64,000 nucleotides of DNA, from NCBI RefSeq assembly GCF_014904695.1, contig NZ_JACXXN010000028.1, forward strand, positions 1-64,000, in the 5' to 3' direction. The stretch is from Nostoc sp. MG11 (GTDB lineage Bacteria; Cyanobacteriota; Cyanobacteriia; Cyanobacteriales; Nostocaceae). The notes under the pieces are model-generated. The model saw only the letters and a list, made by a program, of their open reading frames with translations. It did no database searches and was not told the DNA's origin. Positions 26,596-59,823 of this stretch are shown here, piece by piece; position 1 is the first letter of the stretch, and each line of letters begins with the position of its first letter. The translations under genes and the position numbers were made by a program.

Positions 26596-26805
26596 TTGCA
26601 GGTCGATGCAATAGCATTGCAGGTCGATGCAATAACATTGCAAGCCGATGCAATAACATTGCAAGCCGATGCAATAACATTGCAGGTCGATGCAATAACA
26701 TTGCAGGTCGATGCAATAACATTGCAGGTCGATGCAATAACATTGCAGGTCGATGCAATAACATTGCAGGTCGATGCAATAGTATTGCAGGTCAATGGTG
26801 TTTAA
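26596..26805. repeat. 21-bp tandem array 1 (10 units)
   Basis: Nine close units and one degenerate unit of exactly 21 bp. Each unit has TTGCA, six bases, TGCAA; adjacent units are joined as TGCAATAACATTGCA, another inverted repeat. Open in all frames because 21 is a multiple of 3, but no frame has credible protein character. Ends 61 bp before the NTPase-TPR start. Confidence 0.95.
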
Positions 26806-26866
26806 GCAGTAGTTGGTATAATCCATTCAAGTGTTGCCATATTAATCACCTCTAGCCATCAACCCT

Positions 26867-29077
26867 GTGTTGGATATACAGACAATTCAAAAATTCTACC
26901 AAGACCACAGAGAGTTCATTAACACCCTCATTTCTGGTGGTCTATCTGCAATAATTCCTGTAGTTGCAGGTTTTATTTGGTGGTTAAGATGGCGACACCG
27001 CCAGCAACGCATTCCCTCTTCAAGTTTTCCTTTTGAGGTGATTAAGCCACAAAGTCAAGACGTGTTACAGCGGATTCTCGGCGGGGATGATAATGACCCC
27101 TTGGCTGATAGAAATATTGGTTACCAAGTACGAGTGACTAATCGCAATGTTTGTCACGAATTAAAACAGTTGTTGGAGAAAGAAGAATCGCGCTGGGTAT
27201 TGATTCTAGGACAGAGTGGGCTGGGAAAAACGCGAGAAGCAACAGAATTGGCAAATCATCTCAACCAAGAAGGTTGGACAGTTTTGTTCCTCAAGCCGGG
27301 AGAATGGCTAGATTTTCCGGCGCAGTTGTCATCAGAGATTGGCACAGACCGGAAGTTGCTATTTTTCCTAGATGATTTAAATCAAAAGATGCAGCGCGGT
27401 CATGAAGAAATATCGCCAGAAGCAGAGAAAATTCCTGTACAAAGATTAAAAGTATCATTGCAAGAGCGACTACTGCAAGCGTTGGAGAAGTACGAAAAGT
27501 TTTGCGGTAAGTCAGAAATTCGGGTAATTGCTACGGCGCGAAATGAGAGAATTTCAGACTTTGAGGGAGAACCAACCCATTGGGACAAACTGCAATGGGA
27601 AAAATATCCGCAGTTATTGAATCGCTTTACTCGTTACGAGTTGGCGAAACCAGAAGATAACGCAATTATTGAGTTGTTCAATGAAACCATTCCCAACACA
27701 AATATTTCCGCCAAGGTTGAAGATTATCCCGCATTAGCTAGCCGCAATGACCGCACTTTTAGAAATGTTGTCGAGAATCTCCGCAGCCTGAAAAATAACG
27801 AACAACCTTTGAACCTCAAAACTTATCGACACAGCCTAAAAGACACTTGGGAAGAACGCTACAAAAAAGCTGTGCGGAAATATCCGGCAAGCCGTTACAT
27901 TTATGATGCTGTGGATTTGCTGCAAAAATTCGACATCGAACTACAGCAATTTACCGTGGAAGCGACAGCACGACTGTTAGCAGGTGGAAATTTTTGGCAG
28001 CAATTGCAGTATTGGCGGCAAATTCGGATTGCGACTAACTTGTTGATTCATAGTGAACGCATTTTAGAACCCCATGATGGACAAATTGAGGCAAAGAGAA
28101 GGCGGGTAGAAGCAGGAGAATACATTTTGCGCTTATCACGCTTATTGCTAAAACTAGCAGAACGTTACCCTACACAAATGCAGGAATCACTGATTAGTTT
28201 TGGTAATAAAGTTTCTCGATTAGGTCGCTATAAAGAAGCATTAGCTAGCTTTGATAAAGCTATAAATATATCACCTGAGTCTAGTTTAATATGGTTTTTA
28301 AAAGGTAATGAGCTATTTTATTTAGGAAAATTTCAACAAGCGATCGCCTTTTACGACAAAGCTATAGAATTTAAACCAAGCTCACACAAATCTTGGTACA
28401 ACCGGGGCATGGCACTGGATAAGTTAGTTAGGGAAGAAGAAGCGATTGTCTCTTACGACAAAGCCATAGAATTCAAACCTGATAAGCACGAAGCTTGGAA
28501 TAATCAAGGCTACACACTATCTAATTTAGGAAGATTTGAAGAAGCTATTACTTCTTACGATAAAGCCATAGAGTTCAAACCTGATGACCATGTAGTTTGG
28601 TACAATCGAGGCAATACGCTGTCTATTTTAGGAAATTTTAAAGCAGCTATCACTTCTTACGATAAAGCCATAGAATTTAAACCAGACTTTTACCAAGCTT
28701 GGAATAACCGAGGCTTAAGATTGTCGAATTTAAACAGATTTGAAGAAGCGATCGCCTCTTATGATCAAGCTATAAAATTAAAATCAAACTTACACGAAGC
28801 TTGGTATAATCGGGGCAATACACTGTGGAATTTAGGAAGAAAAAAAGAAGCGATCGCATCTTACGATAAAGTCATAGAATTCAAACCAGACTTTTACCAA
28901 GCTTGGTATGAAAAGGCTCGCTGTTATGCATTGCAGGGGAATATTGAGCAAGCAGTCTATAATTTACAACAAGCTATCAATCTAAATCTTGAAGAATGCC
29001 GAGAAAGAGTGAAAACAGACTCTAATTTTGACAGCATTCGTAATGACAAACGATTTCAGGTATTACTGCAAAGTTAG
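26867..29077 (+). CDS. Membrane-anchored P-loop NTPase with C-terminal TPR repeats
   Basis: 736 residues with a GTG start. One membrane helix (about 23-42), then an NTPase with Walker A GQSGLGKT (115-122) and Walker B LLFFLDDLN (164-172), a helical middle (about 230-440), and eight 34-residue TPRs (about 450-700; repeated SYDKAIEFKPD). The layout is that of STAND-like signalling ATPases, in which TPRs sense a partner and the NTPase is a switch. No effector domain is visible; the membrane segment may be the effector. Divergent from hen1-pnkp. Confidence 0.85.
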   Translation: MLDIQTIQKFYQDHREFINTLISGGLSAIIPVVAGFIWWLRWRHRQQRIPSSSFPFEVIKPQSQDVLQRILGGDDNDPLADRNIGYQVRVTNRNVCHELKQLLEKEESRWVLILGQSGLGKTREATELANHLNQEGWTVLFLKPGEWLDFPAQLSSEIGTDRKLLFFLDDLNQKMQRGHEEISPEAEKIPVQRLKVSLQERLLQALEKYEKFCGKSEIRVIATARNERISDFEGEPTHWDKLQWEKYPQLLNRFTRYELAKPEDNAIIELFNETIPNTNISAKVEDYPALASRNDRTFRNVVENLRSLKNNEQPLNLKTYRHSLKDTWEERYKKAVRKYPASRYIYDAVDLLQKFDIELQQFTVEATARLLAGGNFWQQLQYWRQIRIATNLLIHSERILEPHDGQIEAKRRRVEAGEYILRLSRLLLKLAERYPTQMQESLISFGNKVSRLGRYKEALASFDKAINISPESSLIWFLKGNELFYLGKFQQAIAFYDKAIEFKPSSHKSWYNRGMALDKLVREEEAIVSYDKAIEFKPDKHEAWNNQGYTLSNLGRFEEAITSYDKAIEFKPDDHVVWYNRGNTLSILGNFKAAITSYDKAIEFKPDFYQAWNNRGLRLSNLNRFEEAIASYDQAIKLKSNLHEAWYNRGNTLWNLGRKKEAIASYDKVIEFKPDFYQAWYEKARCYALQGNIEQAVYNLQQAINLNLEECRERVKTDSNFDSIRNDKRFQVLLQS

Positions 29078-29094
29078 ATGGGCAGTTTACACTA

Positions 29095-29210
29095 AATTAA
29101 ACTACAACAGCCAAGATATAAAAACTCTTCTTGTGAAAAGACATCGTACCATTAATCGTATTACTGCTAATGAAATTTGCAAACAAGCAGGTTTATTACC
29201 TAATTTTTAA
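29095..29210 (+). pseudogene. Possible HicA-type toxin C-terminal fragment
   Basis: The frame ends KRHRTINRITANEICKQAGL, recalling the basic C-terminus of HicA-like proteins (RH.EINR.TA..ICKQ). Nothing recognisable precedes it, so at most a remnant. Low confidence. Confidence 0.25.
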
Positions 29211-29458
29211 TTGCTCTGCTAGTTTGTATTGAAGCACTGTTTTGAAAGGATAAACCCGCTCTTGAGTCAACCATGCAGCATAAAGTAGAGATTGACGAAT
29301 ATCCTCTGGTTCTAAATCAGGATATTCTTCTAAAATTTCCTCTACAGGTTTTCCATTAGCTACCAAATTTACCACTAAAGAAACCGGAATTCGCATCCCA
29401 CAAATGCAAGCCCACCCATAATACTAGGGTAAAATGTAATTTTGTCTAGACCTAACAT
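29196..29458 (-). pseudogene. DUF433 (VapB-like) antitoxin gene broken by a frameshift
   Basis: ATG at 29456-29458, preceded by a strong GGAGGG ribosome site, gives MLGLDKITFYPSIMGG. The family continues with a GGRACIRGMRIPVS-like stretch, and this is found in another frame as ACICGMRIPVSLVVNL, then VEEILEEYPDLEPEDIRQSL. The break is near 29410-29412 and fits loss of about four bases. A shortened protein from the internal ATG (29394-29396) would lack the first strands. No DUF5615 toxin lies next to it. Confidence 0.75.
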
Positions 29459-29496
29459 AAATTATCCCTCCAACATCTATTTGTTGCTTAGAAGAA

Positions 29497-29761
29497 GAGG
29501 ATGTTTGAAAAGTCCTTGGTGATGTATCAAATACTTTTAGATCCCCCTAAATCCCCCTTAAAAAGGGAGACTTTGATTCCGTTTCCCCCTTTTGAAGCTA
29601 CGGTGTACACACATCTCTGTACAAAACCAAAATCGTTGTATATCCTCCTAAATCCCCCTTCAAAAGGGGAACTTTGAGAGGTTTTTGCCCCTCTTTTGAA
29701 GGGGGGTTGAGGGGATCAATAAGTGCCTAATATCACAGCCGACCACTTTTCAAACAACCTC
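29497..29761. mobile_element. MITE family B, copy 1 (265 bp)
   Basis: Bounded by GAGGATGTTTGAAAAGTCC and the inverse of GAGGTTGTTTGAAAAGTGG. The interior holds several G/C-run hairpins (AAATCCCCCTTAAAAAGGG). Copy 2 at 44838-45001 is shorter and in opposite orientation. Confidence 0.75.
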
Positions 29762-29879
29762 TAAGCCATATATTCATGAAATCTCGCGTTCTGTCACCAG
29801 TTTTATCTTAGTTTAAATCGAGTTATGAGGTTAAATGATGAGCATTAACGCTTATTCATAAAATTTTCTGCGCTAACTT

Positions 29880-31547
29880 TCAAATCCCATAAGAGCGGGG
29901 ATAAGGCTTTAGAAGTGTCTTAGCCTGATAGACATAAACGACATTAATAACCACCCCACCGCGTCGAATTGGTATCGTTTCAATCTCACTCAAGCTGTTA
30001 AAGTAAGTTCGATAGTTAGCCATCAAATCTTGTCTTTTATTAAAGGGATTAGTAGTGATGTATAGCGCATCTTTTCCCAGCCATTGATTAGCCTCTGACC
30101 AAAAAGCAAAACCACGCAAATCTTTGCCAATATCAAAGCAAGTAATCGGTATGTCAGCAATGGGTTCAAGAGACATAGCTATCGGCCCACCCAGGTAATA
30201 GCGATTGGTAAAAATAAAGCTAGAGTTTTGTAGCGCTGCACTGAGGACGGGAGATTTAGCAAAGCCGCGCCGCAGTTGTTGAATATCAATTAGTTCTGTA
30301 GATGGGTCATCTTTGGGAGGCAAGAACCCACCCAGTAAAGCGTATTGGCTAGGCTTTTGTACTATTCCTGTTGTGACTTGCAACAGTGCAATGAGTAAAA
30401 TACTGCTCACCATAATTCCCGAACCTAAAAGCCATCGCCGTACACTACGTCGAGATTGCTGCTGCCATAAGATTGCTTGTTGTCCTAACAGCAAGGTTAA
30501 CCCCCAAAATCCTGGCATTGACCAGGCAGGCAAAATTTGCCGATATCCACCTATCAGAGTAAACCCTAAAGTTAAGGGCAGAGACACCCATAAAATCAAG
30601 AGCCACGAAGACTCTAACTCTTTTCTGGAGGTTAGTGATTTTTTAGAAAAAACTTGCATTGTTCCAGCCAAAGCTGGTCGCAAACTCACCCACCAGAGGG
30701 GAAATCCTATAGTTGGGAACAGATAAGCTACCCCAGCTAAACAAACGCCTCCTACACTCAGCAGATTGTAGCCGCCTCTGGGTACTGCTCGCTCTGATTG
30801 AAAACGAAACGACACCCAATCATGCTGCATATTCCAAAGCAAAATTGGGGAGATGGTGAGCACAAATAAGCCTAATGCTAACCATGCCCAAGGAGAGCGG
30901 AAAACAGAGCGATGGCGTGGACTCGTTAGACAAAAACCAACTAGCCCTAGTCCTAAGAGAAAACCGTGATATTTGCTGAGGCAGGCTAATCCGACCAGAA
31001 TACCAAGAATTGCTAAGCGGTAACTGGGAAGGTATGAATTAGATGAGCAGGGTTCATCCTGCAACAGGCTTTGTTTTTGAGTTTGAGGCTGCCGAAAAAA
31101 TTCATCCGCTGCACAGTATAAACTAGCTGACCAAAAAAAGATCAAGGGACTATCGGGGAGACTGAGGACGCCAAAGCCAACTAGAAAAATTGGACTGATG
31201 GTAGCGATCGCTAAAGTCAAGCTAGCAGCCTTAGCAGAAAATAATTTCAGGCTAGTCAGATACAATAGCACCAAACTGCCTGTATGCCAAATCAATGCTC
31301 CCAGACGAATCGTAAATTGCGATACAACACCAGTTGACCACGGACCAAAACCAGTTGTCAGCCCCACAAGCATTGGATGATCAAAATAACTCCAGTCCAG
31401 ATGCAGGCTGTAAAGATAGTAGTAAGCCTCATCAAAGGTAGGGTAAAGCCAGAAAGCAATAAAGGCTCGAAACAGCAGTCCCCCAACCAGTAAAAAAAGC
31501 ACTGACTGATTAGTTTTTTGAGCTAACCATTTCTGAGCTATTTGCAT
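29880..31547 (-). CDS. GT39/ArnT-like membrane glycosyltransferase
   Basis: 555 residues with about ten or eleven membrane helices. The first extracytoplasmic loop has FDEAYYYLYSLHLDWSYFDHP, the signature of GT39/PMT_2 enzymes with the catalytic Asp-Glu. Such enzymes move a sugar from a polyprenyl-phosphate donor to a lipid or protein outside the membrane. The C-terminal 150 residues (about 400-555) form the soluble domain. Neighbours give no pathway clue. Confidence 0.88.
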   Translation of the reverse strand: MQIAQKWLAQKTNQSVLFLLVGGLLFRAFIAFWLYPTFDEAYYYLYSLHLDWSYFDHPMLVGLTTGFGPWSTGVVSQFTIRLGALIWHTGSLVLLYLTSLKLFSAKAASLTLAIATISPIFLVGFGVLSLPDSPLIFFWSASLYCAADEFFRQPQTQKQSLLQDEPCSSNSYLPSYRLAILGILVGLACLSKYHGFLLGLGLVGFCLTSPRHRSVFRSPWAWLALGLFVLTISPILLWNMQHDWVSFRFQSERAVPRGGYNLLSVGGVCLAGVAYLFPTIGFPLWWVSLRPALAGTMQVFSKKSLTSRKELESSWLLILWVSLPLTLGFTLIGGYRQILPAWSMPGFWGLTLLLGQQAILWQQQSRRSVRRWLLGSGIMVSSILLIALLQVTTGIVQKPSQYALLGGFLPPKDDPSTELIDIQQLRRGFAKSPVLSAALQNSSFIFTNRYYLGGPIAMSLEPIADIPITCFDIGKDLRGFAFWSEANQWLGKDALYITTNPFNKRQDLMANYRTYFNSLSEIETIPIRRGGVVINVVYVYQAKTLLKPYPRSYGI

Positions 31548-31887
31548 TTACTTAAATTCCTATACAAACAAAATCATCTTATGGCAGCAGCATGGCAACG
31601 TAAAACTTTATTTGTGGTCTTTGATACTCGTTCATCCACCTTTGAACTGGATTAACGAGTGTTTGAACCGGATGAATCTACCTCTCAACTCCGTTAACGA
31701 GTCTTTGAACTGGATAAATCCACCTCTAAACTTCGTTAACGAGTCTTTGATACTCGCTAACAAGCATAAATACTCCGCCCCTCTGCACCTTTAAACCTAA
31801 TTGGCAACACCAAGTTTTAATATGAAGCTATAATTTGCAGAAATATAAACACCTTATCTGTTTTTTTGTATTTCCTGGAGTTGAGTA
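31548..31887. other. 340-bp gap containing array 2
   Basis: Apart from the 21-bp array nothing but AT-rich promoter-like DNA is visible. Confidence 0.6.
31620..31787. repeat. 21-bp tandem array 2 (about 8 units)
   Basis: Units alternate between a form ending ATCCACC and one ending AACGAGTC, giving a 42-bp higher-order period: for example TTTGAACTGG-AT-AACGAGTG then TTTGAACCGG-ATGAATC. The last unit is strongly degenerate. ACTCGTT/AACGAGT inverted pairs link units. Ends 100 bp before the GAF gene. Confidence 0.85.
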
Positions 31888-32580
31888 ATGGTATTTTGGG
31901 GAGATCACACTGGCTTACCAAAGCCTTACAAGGGCTGGAATGTATTCGTAGGTAATGGGCCAGACAATACAGAAAATCAGCTTGTTGCTTCTGTCAAAAA
32001 GCTGCTTGGTTGGCTAAAAGAATATATGTCTGTAGATACTGTCACGCTTCTACTACCTACTAAAGACAAACAGAATCTATTCGTGTATGCCACCATCGGA
32101 CTTAAAGAGGAAATCACAGAAAATATTCAAATTCCCATTGGGCAAGGTGTTGCTGGTCGTATTGCCGCCAGCAATGAACCAATGATAGTCAAAGATCTAT
32201 CAAAGGTAGAAGTTGTAAGTCCTATTTTGCGACAAAAGGGTTTGCGATCGCTCGTCGGTGTTCCATTGCCCATCAAGCAGGGAGTAACCGGGGTTTTACA
32301 CGTTGGCACGTTCAAATCCCACCAATTCACCGAGCGCGATATACAGCAATTGCAACTCGTTGCTCATCGCCTGAGATTGAAGATAGCAGATATAGAACTG
32401 TTTAATCTGCAAAAGCTGGATGACTTAGTATGTTGCTTTAATCTTCAAAAGATAGCTACGTTGAGGACTTCAATTATGTCCCTCTGGTGGAACAGGTTAA
32501 AGTTAAGTTTTTCAGCAATTAAGCAAAAATGTCAGCCCAGCAAATATGCTTTGATTTATTCACCCCAGCGATGCCACTGA
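31888..32580 (+). CDS. Single GAF-domain protein
   Basis: 230 residues. GAF fold at about 28-172: LLGWLKEYMSVDTVTLLLP, IPIGQGVAGRIAASNEPMIV, RSLVGVPLPIKQGVTGVLHVG, FTERDIQQLQLVAHRL, resembling the GAF domains in front of SpoIIE/GGDEF outputs. The last 55 residues (CFNLQKIATLRTSIM and on) match nothing obvious and overlap the convergent gene by 25 bp, suggesting that a former output domain was lost. A ligand-binding or stress-sensing module is likely. Confidence 0.8.
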   Translation: MVFWGDHTGLPKPYKGWNVFVGNGPDNTENQLVASVKKLLGWLKEYMSVDTVTLLLPTKDKQNLFVYATIGLKEEITENIQIPIGQGVAGRIAASNEPMIVKDLSKVEVVSPILRQKGLRSLVGVPLPIKQGVTGVLHVGTFKSHQFTERDIQQLQLVAHRLRLKIADIELFNLQKLDDLVCCFNLQKIATLRTSIMSLWWNRLKLSFSAIKQKCQPSKYALIYSPQRCH

Positions 32581-33614
32581 TGAAAATTAGCTCCTGCACT
32601 CACTGCTAAACCAATTTGGTGCTGTGACGATAGCTCATCATAGCCACCTTCGTTAGCGCCAATGTAGTACATACGGAAACTACCATCATCCATTGGCACT
32701 ACACAAGGCGTACCTACTGCTCGTGCGTCCCAGCGACCAGAACCCTTCTGGGAATGACAAAATACGGAACCATTGGCTTGCTCACCTTTATCTTTTTGCC
32801 AATGAATGCCATCATCAGAAGTGGCTACACCGATAGAGTGATAACCGCTGCTGTTGACACCTTCGTAGAACATGACGTACTGGCCGTTTATCTTCAGTAC
32901 ATGGCGAGTACCAATACCCCGTTCATCGAAGCTTCCAGGCTCACCTGGGCCGAGGATTTGGCCGACTTTTTCCCAGCACAAACCATCGGTAGAAACCGCT
33001 AAGCCTACTAGGAATCCTTTGTCTGGGTTCAAGGTGTGATAGTACAGCTTCCAAGTTCCATCATCATCACGTAGTACTTGTGGCCACGCGCAGAACAGTG
33101 CATCGAATTCTTCTGGTTTGCCTATATCAAGGAAGGCTCCTTGGTAAGGGCCTTCCAGTCGTATCCAATTGATGCCGTCACGCGAAACGGCACACCCAGG
33201 GCGCATCTGCACTCCTTTAGCTTGAAACTTTCCCATGTTGACAACTGTATGGTTGCCACCGAAGTACCACATCCAATAAAGACCATCATAGAAGTTTACA
33301 TTGCTGACACCGACATGAGCTGAATCAAAGCGACTAGGTTCTGGGTGAGGCTCAAAAATAGCTCCCATAGTTAGAGAACCCTTCACCCTTTCCCAATGAA
33401 CACCGTCAGTAGAAATAGCTAAACCACAGCGACCAGTAGGCAAGTTAATTTGCCGATCAAAAGAAGCGTCTCGACCGTAGTACCACATCTTCCAAACGCC
33501 ATCGGGACAGCGCATAACCTGCGGTGCAGAAACCCGCTCGGAATCCCACCAGCCTTTTGAACCAGGTGCTAATACCAAGCCGGGTTGATTGATTTGCATT
33601 GCTTCATGACTCAT
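32556..33614 (-). CDS. Five-bladed beta-propeller glycosidase-like protein (GH43/GH32 type)
   Basis: 352 residues, no signal peptide. Repeating blades with G..W..YY/MWY motifs: DGVWKMWYYGRDAS, LYWMWYFGGNH, DGTWKLYYHTLN, GQYVMFYEGVNS, DGSFRMYYIGANEGG, each followed by CGLAISTDGVHWERV-like segments. This is the pattern of furanosidase-like five-bladed propellers. No clear catalytic Asp/Glu triad could be fixed, so it may be a binding protein. Reads in the same direction as the FAD monooxygenase located 79 bp upstream of it. Confidence 0.75.
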   Translation of the reverse strand: MSHEAMQINQPGLVLAPGSKGWWDSERVSAPQVMRCPDGVWKMWYYGRDASFDRQINLPTGRCGLAISTDGVHWERVKGSLTMGAIFEPHPEPSRFDSAHVGVSNVNFYDGLYWMWYFGGNHTVVNMGKFQAKGVQMRPGCAVSRDGINWIRLEGPYQGAFLDIGKPEEFDALFCAWPQVLRDDDGTWKLYYHTLNPDKGFLVGLAVSTDGLCWEKVGQILGPGEPGSFDERGIGTRHVLKINGQYVMFYEGVNSSGYHSIGVATSDDGIHWQKDKGEQANGSVFCHSQKGSGRWDARAVGTPCVVPMDDGSFRMYYIGANEGGYDELSSQHQIGLAVSAGANFHQWHRWGE

Positions 33615-33693
33615 AATCTAAAATCCAAATTCTAAGATTTCAGCAATTACCGAAGTAGTGATACCAAATTGGGAAAGGAAGTATTAACAGCAC

Positions 33694-51127: not shown

Positions 51128-51255
51128 ATATGAATAACTGATGATAAATGACAAAATGCTTACCCTTACTTCTATATTTGCTAGATTAACTAATAATTCT
51201 AGAAAAAGTCACAGACGAAAGATAGATAATAAATATAATTATTAGCAGTCTAAAT

Positions 51256-51804: not shown

Positions 51805-52777
51805 TTATACTAAACCTACCTCACAAGAAGTGGCGATCGCTTCAATTGATCAAGACAAAACTGCTACATTTATCGCTGGTGGCACAGATTTACTGGGATT
51901 GATGAAAGATGGTGTACAAACAGCAAATAAATTAGTTGATATTAACAGTTTACCTTTAAGAAATATTGAATTTCAAGCTCATAAAATCCGCATAGGTGCA
52001 GTCTGCAAGCTGAGTGATGTGGCATTTCATCCCAAAATTCAGGAGTGCTATCCAGTTATTAGTCAAGCATTGCTACAAAGTGCTTCTCCCCAACTGCGAA
52101 ATATGGCAACAGTGGGCGGTAATTTACTGCAAAGAGTACGCTGTGGCTACTTTCGAGATCCGGTTTTTGCCTGTAATAAACGCACTCCAGGTATAGGTTG
52201 TTCAGCAGTTTCAGGATATAACCGGATGCACGCTATTTTTGGGGCTAGTGAGTCTTGTATCGCCGTTCATCCTTCAGATTTAGCTGTAGCCCTAACGGCA
52301 TTAGATGCTGTAATTTGTACTCAAGGATTGCAAGCAGAACGTCGAATTTCAATTCATGATTTTTATCTTTTACCAGGTGAAACACCAGAAAAGGAAACTT
52401 TATTACAGCCTGGAGAATTGATTACTGCTATTGAAGTCCCGCTTGCGTATAAATCCCATTATTTAAAAGTCAGAGATCGCGCAGCTTATGAATTTGCTCT
52501 AGTTTCTGTTGCTGTTGCTTTAGATATAGAACAAGACACGATTAAATCAGCACGAATCGCTTTTGGAGGAGTAGCACCCAAACCTTGGCGTGCGTGGGAA
52601 GCTGAGGAGTTTCTCAAAGGAAAACCTGTTAATGAAGCTACATTTACAGCCGCAGCGACAATATCCGTCAAAGAAGCCAAACCGCAAACACATAATGAAT
52701 TCAAAATTGAGTTAGTCAAACGCGCTTTGATACGTGCATTTTCGGTTGTGGGAGGAAAGGAACAAATGAGGCGATAA
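51791..52777 (+). CDS. Molybdenum hydroxylase FAD-binding subunit (PaoB/YagS-like)
   Basis: 328 residues. FAD-binding FIAGGTDLLGLMKDG and SPQLRNMATVGGNLLQRVRC, plus a Cys-containing insert (RCGYFRDPVFACNKRTPGIGC) that in PaoB-type proteins holds an extra 4Fe-4S cluster. C-terminal CO-dehydrogenase flavoprotein-like domain (FALVSVAVALDI, FGGVAPKPWRA). Translationally coupled to the 2Fe-2S subunit. The large molybdopterin subunit does not follow here; one lies 10 kb away, inverted. Confidence 0.93.
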   Translation: MQPFSYTKPTSQEVAIASIDQDKTATFIAGGTDLLGLMKDGVQTANKLVDINSLPLRNIEFQAHKIRIGAVCKLSDVAFHPKIQECYPVISQALLQSASPQLRNMATVGGNLLQRVRCGYFRDPVFACNKRTPGIGCSAVSGYNRMHAIFGASESCIAVHPSDLAVALTALDAVICTQGLQAERRISIHDFYLLPGETPEKETLLQPGELITAIEVPLAYKSHYLKVRDRAAYEFALVSVAVALDIEQDTIKSARIAFGGVAPKPWRAWEAEEFLKGKPVNEATFTAAATISVKEAKPQTHNEFKIELVKRALIRAFSVVGGKEQMRR

Positions 52778-52833
52778 AAGCAAGCGATGGCGTACCCGCC
52801 CGCTGTAGGCGATCGCATAACAAAGACCCTATA

Positions 52834-54273
52834 TTGTACAATCGCAAGAGACACAATCTGGAGAGCGACTTGCCTAGATCGATTCACTCTACTCAACCAC
52901 CACTGAGATTTATTCCCCTACGTTTTAACCCATTTATACTCAAGATTACTCAGTGCTTATTACCGCTCTTGCTACGGTTTCGGACTAGACCCTGGCTACC
53001 TGCTGGTATAGTCAATATTGAAGCCAGAAACGTTAAGGTATTAGCCGAACTTTATCAACAATTCCAAGCTGGCAAAATTCGCTTTTTGATAGCATTTCGT
53101 CATCCAGAGGTAGAAGATCCCCTTTGTATGCTATATCTGCTTTCCCGGATTGTGCCAAAGGTTGCTCGTCAGCAAAATATTGAGCTAAAAAACCGGGTTC
53201 ACAGCTATTTTCTTTATGATCGAGGTATGACAATATGGGCCGGGGACTGGCTAGGTAGATTGTTCTCTCGAATCGGGGGTGTGCCAGTTCGTCGTGGTAG
53301 GCGATTAGATAGAAAAGCTATCCAAACATCACGGGAGTTGTTTGCTAGTGGCAAATTTCCCATTTCAGTTGCACCCGAAGGCGGTACAAATGGTCTGAGT
53401 GGTGTTGTTAGTCCTTTGGAACCTGGTGTTGCCCAAATGGGTTTCTGGTGCGTAGAAGACTTGCAAAAAGCCAACCGTTCTGAGACTGTTGTAATTGTAC
53501 CGATCGCCATCCAGTATCGCTACGTTGAACCACCTTGGTCAAAGCTGGATTGGCTATTGAGTAAATTGGAATTTGATAGCGGCTTGCCAATGAAGGAAAT
53601 TGACCAGGGCGAGCAACAAGAAATATACTATCAACGCATCTGTCGCTTAGCTGAATACCTGATTGCAGAGATGGAAGAGTTTTATCGGCGCTTCTATCAT
53701 CAAGATATCCCCAAAATCATCTCAACTGAAGAATCTGCTAGTCCTAATCAAGTATTGATTGACCGACTGCACTACTTAATGAATATAGCTTTGCAAGTTG
53801 CCGAGCAATATTTTGGACTCCAGTCACAGGGGACTTTTATTGACCGCTGTCGCCGTTTGGAAGAAGCTGGCTGGAGTTATATTTACCGAGAAGATTTGCC
53901 AGACATCAACGCTTTACCACTCTTCAAACGTGGTCTAGCAGATTGGATTGCCGAAGAAGCAGACTTGCGGATGCGACACATGCGGTTAGTAGAAAGTTTT
54001 GTCGCAGTTTCCACTTATATGCAAGAACAACTAACTGCTGACAGGTGTGCAGAAATAGCGTTACTCATGTTCGATATGCTCTCTCGAATTAAGGATACAA
54101 CACTTCCAGGGCGACCGCGGTTAGGTTGGAAAGAAGCGCAAATTACCGTGGGTGAGCCAATTTCAGTTAGCGATCGCTGGGCGAGTTCTCAAGGCGATCG
54201 CCATGCAGTTAGACAGGCTTTGAGCGATTTGACAAGAGATTTGCAGATTGCCTTACAGAAAATGATTGATTAG
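52834..54273 (+). CDS. PlsC-like 1-acyl-glycerol-3-phosphate acyltransferase
   Basis: 479 residues, long for PlsC. The HX4D site appears as FRHPEVED (about residue 88) and the glycerol-phosphate block as VAPEGGTNGLSG (about 185), with GGVPVRRGRRLDR between. The C-terminal 250 residues are helical and specific to cyanobacterial homologues. The start is uncertain: only TTG codons (52834 or 52870) are available in frame before the conserved part. Probably acylates lipid precursors at the membrane. Confidence 0.8.
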   Translation: MYNRKRHNLESDLPRSIHSTQPPLRFIPLRFNPFILKITQCLLPLLLRFRTRPWLPAGIVNIEARNVKVLAELYQQFQAGKIRFLIAFRHPEVEDPLCMLYLLSRIVPKVARQQNIELKNRVHSYFLYDRGMTIWAGDWLGRLFSRIGGVPVRRGRRLDRKAIQTSRELFASGKFPISVAPEGGTNGLSGVVSPLEPGVAQMGFWCVEDLQKANRSETVVIVPIAIQYRYVEPPWSKLDWLLSKLEFDSGLPMKEIDQGEQQEIYYQRICRLAEYLIAEMEEFYRRFYHQDIPKIISTEESASPNQVLIDRLHYLMNIALQVAEQYFGLQSQGTFIDRCRRLEEAGWSYIYREDLPDINALPLFKRGLADWIAEEADLRMRHMRLVESFVAVSTYMQEQLTADRCAEIALLMFDMLSRIKDTTLPGRPRLGWKEAQITVGEPISVSDRWASSQGDRHAVRQALSDLTRDLQIALQKMID

Positions 54274-54731
54274 TTAGGTGTTGCATATTTTCGGGATGAT
54301 TTATCGGGCTACGCCCCGCTACGCTAACACGCAGAGGCGCAGAGACGCAAAGGAAAGCATTAAATGAAAAAGTTAAAATCATTTATACTCAAATTCACCA
54401 ATGCCCTTATTCTCTGTGCCTCTGTCTTGAAAAGTTATGTTCGCCGGAAGCCGGCGCTCATACTTTTCGCTGCGTCTCTGCGTGTTAGCACTCGCGGAGC
54501 GTCTCGTAGAGAAGCGGGGCGTAGCCCGGTAAATTCATATTTTCGTTCAGCAATGTCAACAGGAATGTACAGCAAGAAGCCTGAAGATGATAGTACTTCC
54601 TGTTAAGTATATGTGTTTATCTTTTGTAAACTTTTATATTATTAACGAATATGAAAAAACTTTTTAGTTTGCATATATCTATATAGACATGTGCTATATC
54701 TACCTACAGATTTTAAAATGCATTTAACAAT
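54274..54731. other. 458-bp gap with a rearranged MITE
   Basis: MITE-related sequence fills most of it (listed at 54277-54557). The remaining 170 bp are AT-rich and precede the cytochrome gene. Confidence 0.6.
54277..54557. mobile_element. MITE family A-related composite, copy 3
   Basis: Begins GGTGTTGCATATTTTCGGG and ends TTCAGCAATGTC, with CGGGCTACGCCCCGC near the left end and its inverse near the right. Contains an internal CACCAATGCC end, so nested or rearranged. No target duplication found; starts 4 bp after the acyltransferase stop. Confidence 0.6.
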
Positions 54732-56825
54732 ATGAAACGCCAAAAAAACCCTAATACTGGTGTATTTAGGGTCATATATGCTTTAAAAACTAAGGTTGTC
54801 TTATTAATCTGTGTTTTTGTCATTAGTTTGTTTGGTATTCTGTTATCAAATTGCTTGATAACCAGCGAGATAGCCATAGCTAAGAATGGCCTACTGCAAT
54901 CGGCTCCAACTCAACCTTTAGGCTATTACGACTATTTTGGGAAATTGCTAAATCCTCAACAAGCAGCAAGAATAGTTGCTAAGCAAGGACTTGATCCTAA
55001 TGACCCAATTTCCTATCAACGAGTAGGAGCAGTTCAAATCACTGAAGAGTTAATTGCCAAAGGTAAAGATATATTTTTCAATCGCAAAATTGGCGATATA
55101 TTTGGTCTGCAAGGAGTATTTGGTTTTGGAACTGGCGTTGCAACGATTTTGCCAGAACTACAAACAGCAATAGTTAAGTTGCAAGGTCAGCCGACAACAA
55201 ACTTACAAATTACTCTTGAGAAAGATATAACGTTAGGTAGTCGAACTGTTCCTCAAGGAACTGTCATTAATACAGGCTTAAAAATGGAAAAGGGAGGAAC
55301 TTTTCCCATTGGACTGGGAATCACACCTAACATTGATATTAGCTGTGCTGCTTGCCACGTATCCATTTCAAGTCAGGGGGAACCTCTAATCGGAGTACCT
55401 AATGGCGAAATTGCTACACCCTTGTTAGTTGCTTTAGCACCAAATTCTGCTGCGGCATTTTCGCGGTTAAATTTTAATCCTCTAAACCCAGAATATCGAG
55501 GTAATGGAAAAATCATTCTAGACAGTAAAGGTAATGAAGTAGAATTACCTGATCCTGAAAAGTTTGAAAAAGCTTTTGACGATGCAGTATTAGATGTGCC
55601 TTTCGGGAATTTTGAAAGTTCTTCAGATAGTATCAACAATACTACTCAAATTCCTAGCGCTTTCACATTTAAGAATCATCCTTATTTCTTTGATGGACAG
55701 TTTGCTGTCGGGCCGTTTGCGGGATTAAGCGCTAATAACAACGGCGTTCACTCTTCAGAAATCAATCTATTAGCAGCTGCTCAACTCAGTTCAGAAACTC
55801 TTAATATTGATCCAGAAGTTTATATTGGTACATTCCTTCAGAATGCTGCCGACCCACGTCTACGTTTACCAGAAGGAGTTACAGTCAAACCTTCAGAGTG
55901 GTTGCGTAAAATTGCACCAGATGCTACAAAAACAGAATTAGAAGACCAAGTTGCTGCCCCAGGAGCCGGGAATTCTCCCAATCTGCGCCCTAGCTTATTT
56001 ACATACAACGGTTTGGTTTTTAGTCCAAATACTGGAAACCTTAATGATATCGCTAGTGGCTCTTTTTTATTTGCTAATAACGCCATGTCTGCTTTCCAAA
56101 ATAGCTTAGTACCTCCTGCTAACAAAACTTCGGAAAACTGGCAAGCATTGAATAGCAATTCTGTTAGACGTGGAGCAAAAGTTTTTGAGAAAGCTAATTG
56201 TGCAACTTGCCATATTCCACCTTTCTTTACTGATAATAAAATTCATTCAATTGATGAAATTCGTACTAACCCAGCCCGTGCAGAGTCTCGGCTAGGGCTG
56301 AGTAACCTATTAGTGCCACCCAAACTGTACACTTTCAATACTCCCGTTCCCATACCTGCTAACGCTGAGGTGTTAGACGTGCCAACGCAGGGTATTTCTG
56401 ACAGTCCCACGACGTTACCCAAAGGTATATTGCCAAAAGGTGGTTACAAAACTACTTCCTTACGTGGTCTTTATTTAAGCGCACCATATTTGCACGATGG
56501 TGGGGTAGCAGTGCGAGCCGGAAGTCTGCAAGTTAACCCAAATGGCAGTTTCACTGTTGTTGACAAGAGTGGATTAGGGCTAACTGGCACTCTTAGCCAA
56601 AGTATACCTGCTAATGCTGCTAGTAGCTTGCGTGCCTTGGTTGATCGTGAACTTCGTGCTTTAGTTGTGAAAGCCAACAAAGCTAACCCTAGTTTAGTAC
56701 GTAGTAATCTTGATGGTACTGGACATGAATTTTACGTAGATAGGCAAGCTGGGTTTAATTCAAACCAGCAAACAGACTTGATTAATTTCCTACTAGCGCT
56801 TGATGATGACCCTGGTAATTTCTAA
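54732..56825 (+). CDS. Secreted di-haem cytochrome c-type oxidoreductase
   Basis: 697 residues with an N-terminal anchor or signal (about 18-42). Two c-type haem sites: C205-AA-C208-H209 (ISCAACHVS) and C490-AT-C493-H494 (ANCATCHIPPF), nearly 300 residues apart, with a late SAPYLHDGGVAVR element as in MauG/DHOR-type peroxidases and in RoxA-like rubber oxygenases of similar length. Likely a periplasmic electron-transfer or oxygenase enzyme; which of these cannot be decided. Confidence 0.82.
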   Translation: MKRQKNPNTGVFRVIYALKTKVVLLICVFVISLFGILLSNCLITSEIAIAKNGLLQSAPTQPLGYYDYFGKLLNPQQAARIVAKQGLDPNDPISYQRVGAVQITEELIAKGKDIFFNRKIGDIFGLQGVFGFGTGVATILPELQTAIVKLQGQPTTNLQITLEKDITLGSRTVPQGTVINTGLKMEKGGTFPIGLGITPNIDISCAACHVSISSQGEPLIGVPNGEIATPLLVALAPNSAAAFSRLNFNPLNPEYRGNGKIILDSKGNEVELPDPEKFEKAFDDAVLDVPFGNFESSSDSINNTTQIPSAFTFKNHPYFFDGQFAVGPFAGLSANNNGVHSSEINLLAAAQLSSETLNIDPEVYIGTFLQNAADPRLRLPEGVTVKPSEWLRKIAPDATKTELEDQVAAPGAGNSPNLRPSLFTYNGLVFSPNTGNLNDIASGSFLFANNAMSAFQNSLVPPANKTSENWQALNSNSVRRGAKVFEKANCATCHIPPFFTDNKIHSIDEIRTNPARAESRLGLSNLLVPPKLYTFNTPVPIPANAEVLDVPTQGISDSPTTLPKGILPKGGYKTTSLRGLYLSAPYLHDGGVAVRAGSLQVNPNGSFTVVDKSGLGLTGTLSQSIPANAASSLRALVDRELRALVVKANKANPSLVRSNLDGTGHEFYVDRQAGFNSNQQTDLINFLLALDDDPGNF

Positions 56826-56900
56826 TTAAAGGTGCGTTTGATTTCCTTCATTGGTATCAACTTCAGGCGAAAACCTTTAAATATCGAATACAAGATGTTC

Positions 56901-57061
56901 GGCGTTGCTGAGTAGAAATATGAATTTGTATCACGCAGAGGCGCAGCGAAAAGTTCTGTAGGCGGGTTTCCCAACCTAGGAAACTTTTCAAGACAGAGCC
57001 GCAGAGAGTAAGAGTTGAGAAGAGTTGATTTTTAAACTTCATATTCAAATTCAGCAACGCC
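56901..57061. mobile_element. MITE family A, copy 4, with 8-bp target duplication
   Basis: 161 bp, GGCGTTGCTGAGTAG to TTCAGCAACGCC. AGATGTTC flanks both ends (56893-56900, 57062-57069) without mismatch. Interior CACGCAGAGGCGCAG and CCGCAGAGAGTAAGAG, non-coding. Confidence 0.88.
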
Positions 57062-57069
57062 AGATGTTC

Positions 57070-57113
57070 TTGTAGGGCGGGTTACAGTGTTTCGCTTAAC
57101 TCACCCTACGCAA
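57070..57113. repeat. TTGTAGGGCGGGTTA inverted repeat
   Basis: TTGTAGGGCGGGTTA and TAACTCACCCTACGCAA face each other over a 12-nt loop with a few mismatches; a small dispersed hairpin element immediately after the MITE target duplication. Confidence 0.6.
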
Positions 57114-57171
57114 ATCAAGACTAGCGATCGCAACACTTAATTTGTTAACTTTATTTTTGGAGAATTATCTG

Positions 57172-57726
57172 ATGCAATTAACCAATAAGCTTCGTATTGC
57201 TACTGTTAGTATTGTTATCAGCTTCACTGGTGTTAGTACATCTGTAGCACAAGCTGCACAGTTCTTTGATTTTCAGTACTCTTTTCCCAGTTATGAAGCA
57301 AATAGTACAGCAATTTTCACTAGCGGCATCCTCACCACCACAGATTTAGATCCTATAAACAACAACTACACAATCACAGGAATCAGTGGGACAAGAACGG
57401 TAGAAGGAATTACAGAGAAAATTATTGAACTGCTCTCGCCTGGCGAATATGGAACCAATGATAATCTATTGAATGCAAGTATGCCGCTGTTAACCAAGAA
57501 CGGTTTTTCTTACCGAGTTGCTGGAAGCGGCGAAGACGGAAATGGGAACGTTAACGTATTCTATAGTAATTTCAGTGAAGGTTATTCAGAGTTTTCCAGT
57601 AATGTGGATTATGGCAACTTTAGTGTTACTCCACGTCCTATACCCGAACCTTATACAATAGGTGGCTCATTGGTTGCTTTTGGTTTTGGCTGGTGGGCGA
57701 AACGAAAAAGAGCAGTAGCTTCGTAA
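57172..57726 (+). CDS. PEP-CTERM sorted secreted protein
   Basis: 184 residues from the ATG with GGAG 8 bases upstream; an earlier in-frame TTG (57142) lacks a ribosome site. Signal peptide about 4-28 ending AQAA. The C-terminus has IPEPYTIGGSLVAFGFGWW and then KRKRA: PEP motif, membrane helix and basic tail, recognised by an exosortase. The middle is beta-rich and of unknown role. Confidence 0.87.
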   Translation: MQLTNKLRIATVSIVISFTGVSTSVAQAAQFFDFQYSFPSYEANSTAIFTSGILTTTDLDPINNNYTITGISGTRTVEGITEKIIELLSPGEYGTNDNLLNASMPLLTKNGFSYRVAGSGEDGNGNVNVFYSNFSEGYSEFSSNVDYGNFSVTPRPIPEPYTIGGSLVAFGFGWWAKRKRAVAS

Positions 57727-57731
57727 TTCGT

Positions 57732-58604
57732 TCAAGGAGAAGTGGTTTTAGAAACTTCTGGGCTACGAATGATGATATGTCCCTTCTCACTTTCTTGAAT
57801 AGCTAACACCGATGGTAGCTCATTAGATTTTGCATTTGGGGGCAATGCTCGAAACAAATAAATCCAGCCGCCACGTTCTAAGAGTAAGCGCCAGACTCTC
57901 GGCGGCTTTAGATTGCTATCACTATCTTCCCTACCTCGCAAGTCCTCGAATAAACCTCTGTCTCCAATAATGCGATAACCTTTCAAGGAAGGGTCAGCAA
58001 ATATATCATCAAGTTTGCGCCCTACAGCAAACTTTTCTTCAGGTGTAATTAGCGCTACAACGGGTAAAGTGGAGTTTTGACCAGCATCCCGCCTAGCATC
58101 TGCAATGCCTTGCCAACGAGCTAACCAAAATATCACAATTAACACCCAGGATACTATTACTATCTCATTGACTAGCGATCGCAAAAAATCCACTGAACGC
58201 AATTGCCCAGAACCAAATTCAGCTAGAGATTTTAGCTGTTTAGCTATCCATGAACGTCTGCGTTGAGTAGCAAAGATGATGCGGCTAACTAGTGATTGGC
58301 TTGCAGAGACGACTGTATCACTGATGATCTTAATTAACCATAATGTAGCTTGAATGGCGATCGCAGCGACAAAAAAAGCGATCGCAGTTTTGCAGATTGT
58401 CCAACCATCTCCGAGAAATATTTGCAGGGGAACTATTAAAAAAGACTGTGCAGGTAAGTCGAGAGTATTGAGTTCTAGCTGAAAAAAGTAAAAATATGAC
58501 CAACGATAAATCCAGCCTGCAAAGAAAAGCGCCGCACCCAGTAAGCCAAGTACACTCGTGAATTTACCTAAAATATTAGTTTCCTGGTTAGGTGCTTGGG
58601 TCAT
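57732..58604 (-). CDS. Hypothetical three-helix membrane protein
   Basis: 290 residues. Membrane helices about 15-35, 72-95 and 148-168, with a basic loop (IIFATQRRRSWIAKQLK) between the second and third. The 120-residue C-terminus (TLPVVALITPEEKFAVGRKL; YRIIGDRGLFEDLRGRED; VWRLLLERGGWIYLFRALP) is soluble. Not recognised as a named family. Convergent with the PEP-CTERM gene, 5 bp apart. Confidence 0.75.
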   Translation of the reverse strand: MTQAPNQETNILGKFTSVLGLLGAALFFAGWIYRWSYFYFFQLELNTLDLPAQSFLIVPLQIFLGDGWTICKTAIAFFVAAIAIQATLWLIKIISDTVVSASQSLVSRIIFATQRRRSWIAKQLKSLAEFGSGQLRSVDFLRSLVNEIVIVSWVLIVIFWLARWQGIADARRDAGQNSTLPVVALITPEEKFAVGRKLDDIFADPSLKGYRIIGDRGLFEDLRGREDSDSNLKPPRVWRLLLERGGWIYLFRALPPNAKSNELPSVLAIQESEKGHIIIRSPEVSKTTSP

Positions 58605-58702
58605 ACGAGAATTGTAGAAGAAACTTATTGAGATAGTATAAAACTAACCCTTCAATGTGTAATAGACATCCGAAAATTAATTATGCGTTGCCCAAAATCC
58701 TT

Positions 58703-58731
58703 GTAGAGACGTAGCACTGCTACGTCTCTAC
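58703..58731. repeat. 29-bp dispersed palindrome, variant with compensating changes
   Basis: Arms GTAGAGACGTAGCA and TGCTACGTCTCTAC. Relative to the other copies, T to A in the left arm is matched by A to T in the right arm. Confidence 0.85.
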
Positions 58732-58865
58732 ATCTTTGTCGGAGATGTCTAATGTATTTTTCTTTGTGTCTTAGTGGCTTGGTGGTTTAGAAATCAAATT
58801 TTTAACCACAAAGACACATTATTTAGATGATTTTACGGAAATTTGATATCTGCTTTGGAAGTTTA

Positions 58866-59501
58866 ATGAGAAAGTGGAATATAGTCAAATATACTGTTAA
58901 AGCCATGAAAGCTTTTTTCCAGGGATGGGTTGTGGCAATCTTAGTAATGGCAGCAGCGCTAGCTGGAAACATCCAAGCTGTAATTAGCAAAGATGTCAAG
59001 ACGGAAAATTTCTTGTTAGCACAGACACCAGTCAAAGCAGATGAATTAGACCTTGCAGTGTCCTTGCCAAAGTTAGCGCAGGTCATCTTTAAAGGGGGTG
59101 AGTCAAGCAGTGGTCAGATAATAGGAATTGATGCACAAGGCCAAGCACTATCAATTCAGCGTAGTGGTAAAACTGCTACGATTCCCTTGAGCCAAATTGC
59201 AAGAGTAGTTTTCAAGAATGAGAGGTTTGTTTACAGCAGCAATGAACTTCAAGTTATGCGGAACCCACGAATAGACCGTCCCCAAGGTAAGCCAGTAACT
59301 TGGAGTGGTATTCCACTAAATACTTTTACCATAAAAAATCCTATCCAAGGTCAAGCAGTAGTAAAGCTCAAACCACCTGTGGTTTCTACAGCACAGTTGC
59401 GAGGTATTCGGTCAGTGGCTAGAAATCGGCAATATGTGATAGATGAAATCCAATTCAATTCGCAACAAAGAACGATCACTATTTTGGCAAAACCTTATTG
59501 A
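58866..59501 (+). CDS. Secreted hypothetical protein
   Basis: 211 residues from ATG 58866, which has GGAAG 7 bases upstream; starts at 58827 or 58905 are alternatives (the last begins MKAFFQGWVVAILVM, a clean signal peptide). Mature part: VIFKGGESSSGQIIGIDAQGQALSIQRSGKTA-like beta segments, IARVVFKNE and LRGIRSVARNRQYVIDEIQF. It resembles a small secreted beta-barrel; no named family. Just upstream of array 3 and the TPR-CHAT gene. Confidence 0.75.
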   Translation: MRKWNIVKYTVKAMKAFFQGWVVAILVMAAALAGNIQAVISKDVKTENFLLAQTPVKADELDLAVSLPKLAQVIFKGGESSSGQIIGIDAQGQALSIQRSGKTATIPLSQIARVVFKNERFVYSSNELQVMRNPRIDRPQGKPVTWSGIPLNTFTIKNPIQGQAVVKLKPPVVSTAQLRGIRSVARNRQYVIDEIQFNSQQRTITILAKPY

Positions 59502-59823
59502 GCGTGAATTATTTTATCTCTAGGGGCGTAGATGTACACCCCTAACCTTTTTGACGTTCCTAACGACAGACACGATGTTAATCACAAACATCGCAACATT
59601 AATAAGAAACATTACGATGTCAATAACAAACACCGCGATATCAATAAGAAACATTGCGATGTTAATGACAAACATTGCGATATTAATAAGAAACATTGCG
59701 ATGTCAATAACAAACACCGCGACATTAATAAGAAACATTGCGATATTAATAACAAACATCACGATGTTGGTAATGACAGCTTTTGCTAACACCAATTGAA
59801 AACAGCTACCTCTGCGCTACTTT
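59502..59823. other. 322-bp gap occupied by array 3
   Basis: Two-thirds of the gap is the 21-bp array; apparent frames through it are a by-product of the period being a multiple of three. Confidence 0.7.
59573..59782. repeat. 21-bp tandem array 3 (10 units)
   Basis: Nine full units and one degenerate one, e.g. CGATGTTAATCAC-AAACATCG with perfect 7-bp arms. Units with AAGAAACATTG alternate roughly with AACAAACACCG, so a 42-bp higher-order period. Ends about 40 bp before the TPR-CHAT ATG. Confidence 0.95.

What the first reader, a model, noticed from the sequence alone, without database searches (positions are those of the whole stretch)
26596..59782. Three unrelated 21-bp tandem arrays, each just upstream of a plus-strand gene
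Arrays at 26596-26805, 31620-31787 and 59573-59782 share the exact 21-bp period, 8-10 units and internal inverted repeats, but not sequence. Distances to the next start are 61, 100 and about 40 bp; two of the three genes are TPR proteins. 21 bp is two helical turns, so every unit would present its site on one face of the DNA. The shared geometry with different sequence suggests a mechanism or selection acting on period rather than sequence. Role is inference.
Basis: partly seen in the sequence, partly recalled or inferred. Interest (0 to 1): 0.82.

Follow-up and report, generated by a model that had tools for sequence, protein, structure and literature searches.

The report
Roaming 21-bp tandem repeat arrays
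Between genes of a Nostoc-like cyanobacterium lie tandem repeats whose letters differ from place to place and species to species while the repeat length stays at 21 bases, which points to an unknown rule acting on DNA spacing rather than on sequence or on the neighbouring genes.

Summary
The three arrays are real and their units unrelated; arrays 1 and 3 show inverted repeats, array 2 does not. In 694 sampled intergenic regions of this genome, 14 of 18 non-heptameric tandem signals with lag 15-30 sit at exactly 21, none at 16-20 or 22-24 (array 2 shows at lag 42). The excess recurs in named Nostoc-like loci. Unit sequence turns over at orthologous sites while the period stays: the Hen1 intergenic region holds a family-1 array in two species, a family-2 array in two others, none in a fifth. 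In 31 arrays: 204 distinct substitutions, no indel; ordinary intergenic DNA gives 0.12 indels per substitution. Eight intergenic rows were dropped first; one holds an indel.

The 'upstream of a gene' half fails: 4 of 15 arrays with both neighbours are convergent, against 12% of intergenic room; neighbours are mostly unrelated genes. Coding is not supported; hairpins and predicted curvature are not general. Best reading: dispersed, non-coding minisatellites that spread and re-amplify in register, unit length held at 21 bp by a DNA-level constraint I could not identify. Nearest known: cyanobacterial STRR, LTRR and SDR repeats.

The parts
26596..26805 (+). Array 1, family F1: about 10 units of TTGCAGGTCGATGCAATAACA, exact 21-bp register; lies in the divergent intergenic region Hen1(-) / STAND-TPR(+)
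   Evidence: TRF; extent; orthologous region in relatives
31634..31768 (+). Array 2, family F2: alternating 21-mers (42-bp higher order), about 6 units; divergent intergenic region PMT(-) / GAF(+); runs into the shared F2 right-hand sequence (match 31747-31786)
   Evidence: TRF; family; shared end
59573..59778 (+). Array 3, family F3: alternating 21-mers (42-bp higher order), about 9 units; between two plus-strand genes
   Evidence: TRF; the orthologous position in G003 holds a 21-bp array with mostly different unit sequence
25086..26474 (-). Hen1 (RNA repair 3'-end methyltransferase), left neighbour of array 1; anchor for orthologous comparison
   Evidence: Pfam Hen1_L
26867..29077 (+). STAND-like NTPase + TPR protein, right neighbour of array 1
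   Evidence: Pfam, (TPR strong; nSTAND3 just above, nSTAND_NTPase5 and AAA_16 below the curated cut-off)
29880..31547 (-). PMT-family glycosyltransferase, left neighbour of array 2
   Evidence: Pfam
31888..32580 (+). GAF-domain protein, right neighbour of array 2; anchor for orthologous comparison
   Evidence: Pfam
58827..59501 (+). Protein without Pfam match, left neighbour of array 3
59824..62673 (+). TPR + CHAT protein, right neighbour of array 3
   Evidence: Pfam

Best explanation
The three arrays belong to a class of non-coding intergenic minisatellites of Nostoc-like cyanobacteria. SHOWN: families F1 and F2 occur at many places in the genome, some with shared edge sequences, so they spread; at a given site arrays are present or absent, differ in copy number, or are of another family between close relatives; through all this the unit stays at 21 bp, with substitutions but almost no indels. 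SHOWN: they are not concentrated at gene starts and show no coding signal. INFERRED: they behave as mobile or self-amplifying, near-neutral DNA that copies in whole-unit register, and variants whose unit length is not 21 bp (two helical turns of relaxed B-DNA, or three heptamers) do not persist because of a DNA-level constraint (replication, recombination, or a protein that needs phased spacing). Which of these imposes the 21 is not known.
For: Period: lag spectrum of 694 intergenic regions (213.6 kb): without 7-bp arrays, 14 segments at lag 21, 14 at 42, 11 at 63; at lags 15-30 otherwise one each at 15, 25, 28, 29. TRF on 1.229 Mb: arrays with >=4 copies, period 21 x 12 (10 intergenic, 2 in genes) and 42 x 4, against one 18, one 27 and none at 19, 20 or 22-26. 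Recurs in 19 named Nostoc-like loci (9 non-heptameric lag-21 segments, four of them the region upstream of Hen1; 0 at 19, 20, 22, 23; one each at 18 and 24), 0 in 29 other heterocystous loci, 1 in 23 other cyanobacterial loci, 0 in 9 non-cyanobacterial loci; groups made by me from record titles. Dispersal: F1 query gives 8 matches at 6 own places, itself included; F2 array matches at at least 21 own places, query included (40 of 68 candidates scored). Shared edges. Turnover: Hen1 region own and G003 F1, G004 and G001 F2, G002 none, G019 F1-like; locus Q own F2, G001 two F1 units, no TRF array in G002, G003, G004; locus R own, G003, G004 F1, G001 empty; locus P own only; window array 3 against a degenerate 21-bp array in G003. 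Indels: 204 distinct changes (310 mismatches, 257 units) and 0% indels by TRF in 31 arrays, against 75 indels per 617 substitutions in aligned intergenic DNA. Non-coding: no consistent synonymous excess (41), no frame open in all F1 or all F2 arrays (47), 92 open frames against 85 expected (49).
Against: The constraint itself is not identified. 7-bp arrays are also low in indels (about 12 indel bases to 489 mismatches over own and other samples), so low indel content is not peculiar to 21. The zero-indel count was made after dropping 8 of 39 intergenic rows; one dropped row (L253:5342) holds an indel, and one shorter 7-mer-derived array (C161:408906) does too. In one relative (L101, GAF locus of G004) TRF's 21-bp row has 16% indels although its 42-bp row has none. 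F1 and F2 each share ancestry, so their arrays are not independent births of the period. The indel baseline comes from two relatives and from local alignments. Some own-genome stretches were taken because they held F1 hits (one search then), and a later 230-kb sample held no clean 21-bp array. G010 also has long 20- and 26-bp arrays, so other periods do occur in the family.
Confidence: 0.6

Rival explanations
1. Period by inheritance only: all families descend from one old 21-bp unit; sequences drift and re-amplify, and nothing acts on the length now.
For: Within-family ancestry is clear (shared edges); at locus 3 the own and G003 arrays share a 14-mer (by eye), as if homologous arrays had drifted apart and kept 21.
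Against: At least five array types do not align to F1 or F2 above shuffles (the G003 locus-3 array does not align to F3 above shuffles either). No indels beside 204 substitutions, when about 25 were expected from the intergenic ratio.
Confidence: 0.2
2. Architectural or regulatory protein-binding arrays: two-turn spacing puts each unit on one face so that a protein can coat or bend the DNA.
For: 21 bp = 2 x 10.5 bp; in a wedge model 29 of 31 arrays are straighter when one base per unit is removed or added, and 5 of 31 (all 42- or 63-bp rows, window array 2 and its G003 orthologue among them, end-to-end ratio 0.33) are far more curved than their shuffles.
Against: No shared motif between families; stems above chance in 11 of 44 units only; none of the 19 plain 21-bp arrays is unusually curved (mean rank 0.47), and for 42/63-bp rows the shuffle destroys the half-period, so that comparison is unfair; bacterial sequence periodicity is usually about 11 bp, not 10.5 (PMC4132750, passages seen).
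Confidence: 0.15
3. Promoter-proximal control arrays for the downstream plus-strand genes.
Against: Placement follows intergenic room, with convergent regions if anything over-used (4 of 15 against 12%); neighbours are mostly unrelated genes; array presence is not conserved with the gene.
Confidence: 0.06
4. Structured RNA or DNA hairpins in tandem, in the manner of SDR or REP/BIME elements.
For: Mean best stem 4.1 bp against 3.3 in shuffles; 11 of 44 unit consensuses reach p <= 0.05, in F1, F2 and F3.
Against: 33 of 44 units have no stem above chance, both units of window array 2 included; no Rfam match at the arrays; the G003 variant at Hen1 shortens one of the F1 stems while another remains.
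Confidence: 0.08
5. Translated heptapeptide repeats (21 bp = 7 codons).
For: Absence of frameshifting indels; every array has at least one open frame (31 of 31); three of 96 frame tests reach p <= 0.04.
Against: 29.8 of 31 expected by chance, p 0.27; three such p values are expected by chance among 96 (16 arrays with >=5 changes tested); no frame open in all members of F1 or F2; the one open frame at G003 locus 3 runs only 40 bp before the array and ends with it, with no ATG, GTG or TTG seen there by eye.
Confidence: 0.04

Closest known systems
STRR, short (7-bp) tandemly repeated repetitive sequences of heterocystous cyanobacteria (name seen in listings; detail recalled)
   Same: Same hosts, intergenic, many loci, head-to-tail, low in indels
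   Different: Unit 21 not 7; units show no internal 7-bp repeat on average (shift-7 match 4.9 against 5.1 at other shifts), with one clear exception, C161:470110 (13 of 21); narrower distribution in my samples
SDR, small dispersed repeats of 21-27 nt in Nostoc (Elhai et al. 2008, Genome Res 18:1484; not held; content recalled; cited in PMC4390886, passages seen)
   Same: Nostoc relatives, similar unit size, dispersed, some dyad symmetry
   Different: Arrays are tandem without spacer, sequence differs between families, no stem common to all; identity with any named SDR family could not be tested
LTRR, long tandemly repeated repetitive sequences of Anabaena PCC 7120 (mentioned in PMC2408588, passages seen; length of 37 bp recalled)
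   Same: Tandem, intergenic, dispersed, with hairpin potential
   Different: Different period; lag 37 found in 0 of 694 intergenic regions
Bacterial minisatellites / VNTRs (general knowledge)
   Same: Copy number differs between relatives and units are alike within an array
   Different: One fixed period across unrelated sequences

Membership tests
Intergenic minisatellite / VNTR | Head-to-tail copies outside genes with copy number varying between relatives | tested here: met
   Copy numbers at orthologous sites: 9.6 and 5.6 (Hen1; own, G003), 2.8, 7.8 and 2.7 (GAF, 42-bp units; own, G003, G004), 12.2, 7.2 and 9.9 (locus R; own, G003, G004, the last at a contig end)
STRR | 7-bp unit | tested here: not met
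   Period 21; no excess self-match at shift 7 on average, one exception
LTRR | The published Anabaena unit (37 bp, recalled) | tested here: not met
   21-bp register; no lag-37 signal; the published sequence itself was not compared
SDR (Elhai et al. 2008) | Named 21-27 nt sequence families with published consensus | not testable with these tools
   Paper not held
SDR (Elhai et al. 2008) | Common predicted hairpin (recalled, for three of the families) | tested here: not met
   Stem above chance in 11 of 44 units only
SDR (Elhai et al. 2008) | Dispersed single copies | tested here: inconclusive
   At score >15 outside arrays: F1 4 hits (null 3), F2 12 (null 1), several of the F2 hits in short clusters; F3 1 (null 3)
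CRISPR array | Repeats separated by unique spacers | tested here: not met
   Units are adjacent without spacers
Coding tandem repeat | Conserved open frame with synonymous bias | tested here: not met
Promoter-proximal operator array | Preferential position upstream of starts | tested here: not met

The most novel reading that the evidence does not exclude
Nostoc-like cyanobacteria carry a sequence-independent process that makes or keeps tandem DNA only when its unit is exactly two helical turns (21 bp): a machinery or chromosomal selection that measures DNA period, not sequence, so that arrays of any sequence are amplified, dispersed and purged of length variants.
Probability: 0.2. Interest if true: 0.85.

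Novelty: new variant of a known kind. Interest (0 to 1): 0.52.

Why it matters
Bacterial minisatellites are usually treated as neutral slippage products with whatever period they were born with (general knowledge). A class whose sequence turns over within a genus while its period is fixed turns the question of whether something in the cell reads helical spacing of DNA into a simple test: replace 21 by 20 or 22 and watch. It also warns annotators not to infer promoter function from arrays that merely happen to precede genes.

Tried and rejected
Coding: synonymous-bias test in six frames on the 16 arrays with >=5 changes (G003:345 reached p 0.01 in two frames, L176:20472 p 0.04 in one), open-frame test against position-shuffled units, family-wide frames: not supported. 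RNA: Rfam on the window at gathering thresholds, only a tRNA; stem statistics: 11 of 44 units, not general. Heptamer ancestry: no average shift-7 signal, one array (C161:470110) clearly built of three related heptamers. Curvature: wedge model with parameters recalled from memory: the 19 plain 21-bp arrays no more curved than shuffles; 5 of the 12 rows with 42/63-bp units are, window array 2 included, but there the shuffle destroys the half-period. TPR link: 3 of 27 scanned neighbours; 31 neighbours were called, 3 were split between fetched stretches and could not be scanned and one 55-aa call was left out. Mobile-element ends: shared edges for some F1 and F2 arrays (several of these matches are weak, E 0.03-0.33); I did not look for terminal inverted repeats or target duplications. 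Solo units: excess for F2 only. Literature: ten searches; among the papers listed I noticed no description of a 21-bp period class in cyanobacteria, but I saw listings only, plus passages of four papers; the library is incomplete and the key SDR paper is not held.

Rows dropped: of 49 catalogue rows (period 21/42/63/105, >=76 bp) 10 were called in genes; of 39 intergenic rows 8 were left out: C216:182465 and G007b:75408 (guessed to be coding, not tested then), UHCC0926pn1:27027 (105-bp unit), G010:79950 and G004:199597 (63-bp units), L192:488 (7-bp derived), L253:5342 (has an indel), L172:2784 (duplicate of G004:2784). Of these only L253 has TRF indels. A later check shows that the open frames over G007b:75408 and over G010:34368 (called in-gene) barely outrun the arrays, so both are probably further non-coding 21-bp arrays, in two other genera of the family. 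One of the 31 kept arrays had too few units to enter the substitution count. In one search C216:182465 is counted; without it 15 arrays have both neighbours, and C161:215 lies at a contig edge. Genes were called with my own simple hexamer caller, so starts are approximate. Other lags were not filtered for 7-bp arrays.
Full report
1. Observation. Tandem Repeats Finder puts the arrays at 26596-26797 (21 bp, 9.6 copies), 31634-31750 (42 bp = two alternating 21-mers, 2.8 copies) and 59573-59764 (42 bp = two alternating 21-mers, 4.6 copies), all without indels (sequences). At a looser lag-21 criterion they run 26582-26807, 31630-31768 and 59568-59778. The units are mutually unrelated. Dyad symmetry is clear in array 1 and in one of the two alternating units of array 3, absent in array 2. 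Arrays 1 and 2 lie in divergent intergenic regions, array 3 between two plus-strand genes.

2. Is the period special? I took 1.229 Mb of the same genome by place (and the window; some stretches were chosen because one search showed a family-1 hit there). Among TRF arrays with at least four copies there are 12 with period 21 (10 intergenic, 2 in genes) and 4 with 42, one 18, one 27, none with 19, 20 or 22-26, beside 23 with period 7. A simpler check, the number of intergenic regions (694 of >=100 bp) holding a 42-bp window at least 71% self-identical at each lag, gives 17 at lag 21 (14 after removing 7-bp arrays), 0 at each of 16-20 and 22-24, and the harmonics 42 and 63. Split by contig, 14 of the 18 signals at lags 15-30 are at 21; one of the 14 is C216:182465, which I had guessed to be coding, and one is in C208, taken for its F1 hit; window array 2 is not among them and appears only at lag 42. 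A further 230 kb contained no clean 21-bp array.

3. Which organisms? The 80 named loci around Hen1 (1.357 Mb) served as a second sample, grouped by me from record titles. Lag-21 signals not explained by 7-bp arrays: 9 in 19 Nostoc-like loci (Nostoc, Komarekiella, Atlanticothrix), four of the nine being the region upstream of Hen1; 0 in 29 loci of other heterocystous genera; 1 in 23 other cyanobacterial loci (L203, an uncultured cyanobacterium whose array one search put inside a gene); 0 in 9 non-cyanobacterial loci. F1-like arrays are also on a megaplasmid of Nostoc sp. UHCC 0926. Stretches of G007, G022 and G010 are dominated by 7-bp arrays, but G007 and G010 each hold one long 21-bp array of other sequence that is probably non-coding; G010 also has 20- and 26-bp arrays. 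So the class is centred on Nostoc-like genomes but not confined to one genus.

4. Families and movement. Two families dominate the catalogue: F1 (RGYCGATGCAATnnCATTGCA-like, 12 of 32 arrays compared) and F2 (AACTCCATTAATGAGTCTTTG-like, 11 of 32, plus the G001 Hen1 array, which scores only 12 but is F2 by its first units, by eye); at least five others do not align to them above shuffles. An F1 query gives 8 matches at 6 own places, itself included; an F2 array matches at least 21 own places, itself included (where 40 of 68 candidates were scored). F2 arrays share a right-hand edge at seven places (one of them the G003 orthologue of window array 2) and a left-hand edge at two; F1 arrays share a roughly 50-bp neighbouring sequence at three places, one in another species (E-values from 4e-6 to 0.33, so the weakest are suggestive only). 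So arrays, or their edges, spread.

5. Turnover at orthologous sites. Hen1 intergenic region: own and G003 F1, G004 and G001 F2, G002 no array, G019 F1-like with other upstream sequence, G009 none. GAF region: own, G003, G004 F2; TRF listed nothing for G001 and G002. Window array 3: G003 has five clear units (TRF match 69%) that share a 14-mer with own units by eye and keep 21 bp, though their consensus does not align to F3 above shuffles; the neighbouring genes are 90-95% identical. Locus P (C161:441154): own only, near-empty in G002, other sequence in G001, G003, G004. Locus Q (C161:330456): own F2, G001 two F1 units, G003 empty, no TRF array in G002 or G004 (G004 shows one degenerate F1-like unit by eye). 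Locus R (C162:31421): own, G003, G004 F1, G001 empty, G002 one flank only. Locus O (C158:73226): own and G004 F1; G003 contigs end in it; no array by TRF in G001.

6. Indels. In 31 intergenic arrays (of 39 catalogued; drops listed under Tried and rejected) 257 units show 310 mismatches, 204 distinct changes, 139 of them in a single unit, and TRF reports no indel. Aligned intergenic DNA between this genome and two relatives gives 75 indels to 617 substitutions; genes give 26 to 2968; all TRF-marked repeats together 1 to 315. About 25 indels would have been expected from the intergenic ratio. Counting dropped and shorter arrays, two own-genome arrays with an indel exist (L253:5342, C161:408906). 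7-bp arrays are also low in indels, so this may be a property of the clade's tandem repeats at large.

7. What it is not. Placement: tandem 7, convergent 4, divergent 4 of 15, against room of 60, 12 and 27%. Neighbours include aldehyde dehydrogenase, EPSP synthase, radical SAM proteins, tryptophan synthase alpha, ABC ATPases and a kinase; TPR in 3 of 27 scanned. Coding tests are negative; stems exceed chance in 11 of 44 units; no Rfam family at the arrays; curvature is unremarkable for plain 21-bp arrays but strong for window array 2.

8. Reading. The most economical account is a dispersed, near-neutral, in-register evolving minisatellite class whose unit length is constrained. Two turns of relaxed B-DNA or three heptamers (one array, C161:470110, visibly consists of three related heptamers) are the obvious meanings of 21; lags 14 and 28 are rare (1 each outside 7-bp arrays), which favours two turns over any multiple of seven. 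This last step is inference. A point against a simple 10.5-bp reading is the roughly 11-bp periodicity of bacterial genomes, strong in cyanobacteria (PMC4132750, passages seen).

9. Compared with what is known. STRR, LTRR and SDR repeats of the same organisms are the nearest kinds; none was shown to include these arrays, and the SDR paper could not be read. One Nostoc genome paper says that ORFs made only of low-complexity sequence such as minisatellites were removed from its annotation (PMC5987646, passages seen). I rate this a new variant of a known kind.

Noticed in passing
window 22393-26474 (-): A Pnkp-like polynucleotide kinase-phosphatase/ligase (by eye from the ORF translation, not scanned) and Hen1, a bacterial RNA repair pair, back to back with a STAND-like TPR gene.
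   Followed up: partly
window 28320-28909 and 60087-61145: 102-bp and 120/360-bp tandem repeats inside the two TPR genes; the second gene's main alignment to G003 is 90% identical while its neighbours are about 95%.
   Followed up: no
G000 C161:177311-177360, C162:31679-31737; L048 about 16515-16570: A roughly 50-bp similar sequence (GTTTTTAGAT..GGCAAGGTTAAAGAAAGGGTAAGTT) sits directly beside F1 arrays in two loci of this genome and on a Nostoc sp. UHCC 0926 plasmid.
   Followed up: partly
beside arrays at C216:223645, C161:470297, C161:492833-492959, C216:224126, C162 locus R, L071 Hen1 region: A dispersed sequence containing AGGACTTACGCAC (or its complement), often with a CCCCTTAAAAAGGGGG-type palindrome, lies next to 21-bp arrays; it looks like a MITE and may share their insertion sites (by eye).
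   Followed up: no
G010:C1 about 2601690-2601969 and 2621336-2621459: Arrays of 20-bp and 26-bp units (GATTTATCGCGTCTC-like) in another genus, 98% matches, no indels.
   Followed up: no
G004:C48 about 103711-105458: CRISPR-like arrays with repeat GTTTCAATCCCTAATAGGGATTTTAAGTAATTGGAAT.
   Followed up: no
G000 C161:470110-470297: A 21-bp array whose unit is three related heptamers (GAACTCG/GAACTTC/GTGCTCG), a possible birth route from 7-bp arrays.
   Followed up: partly
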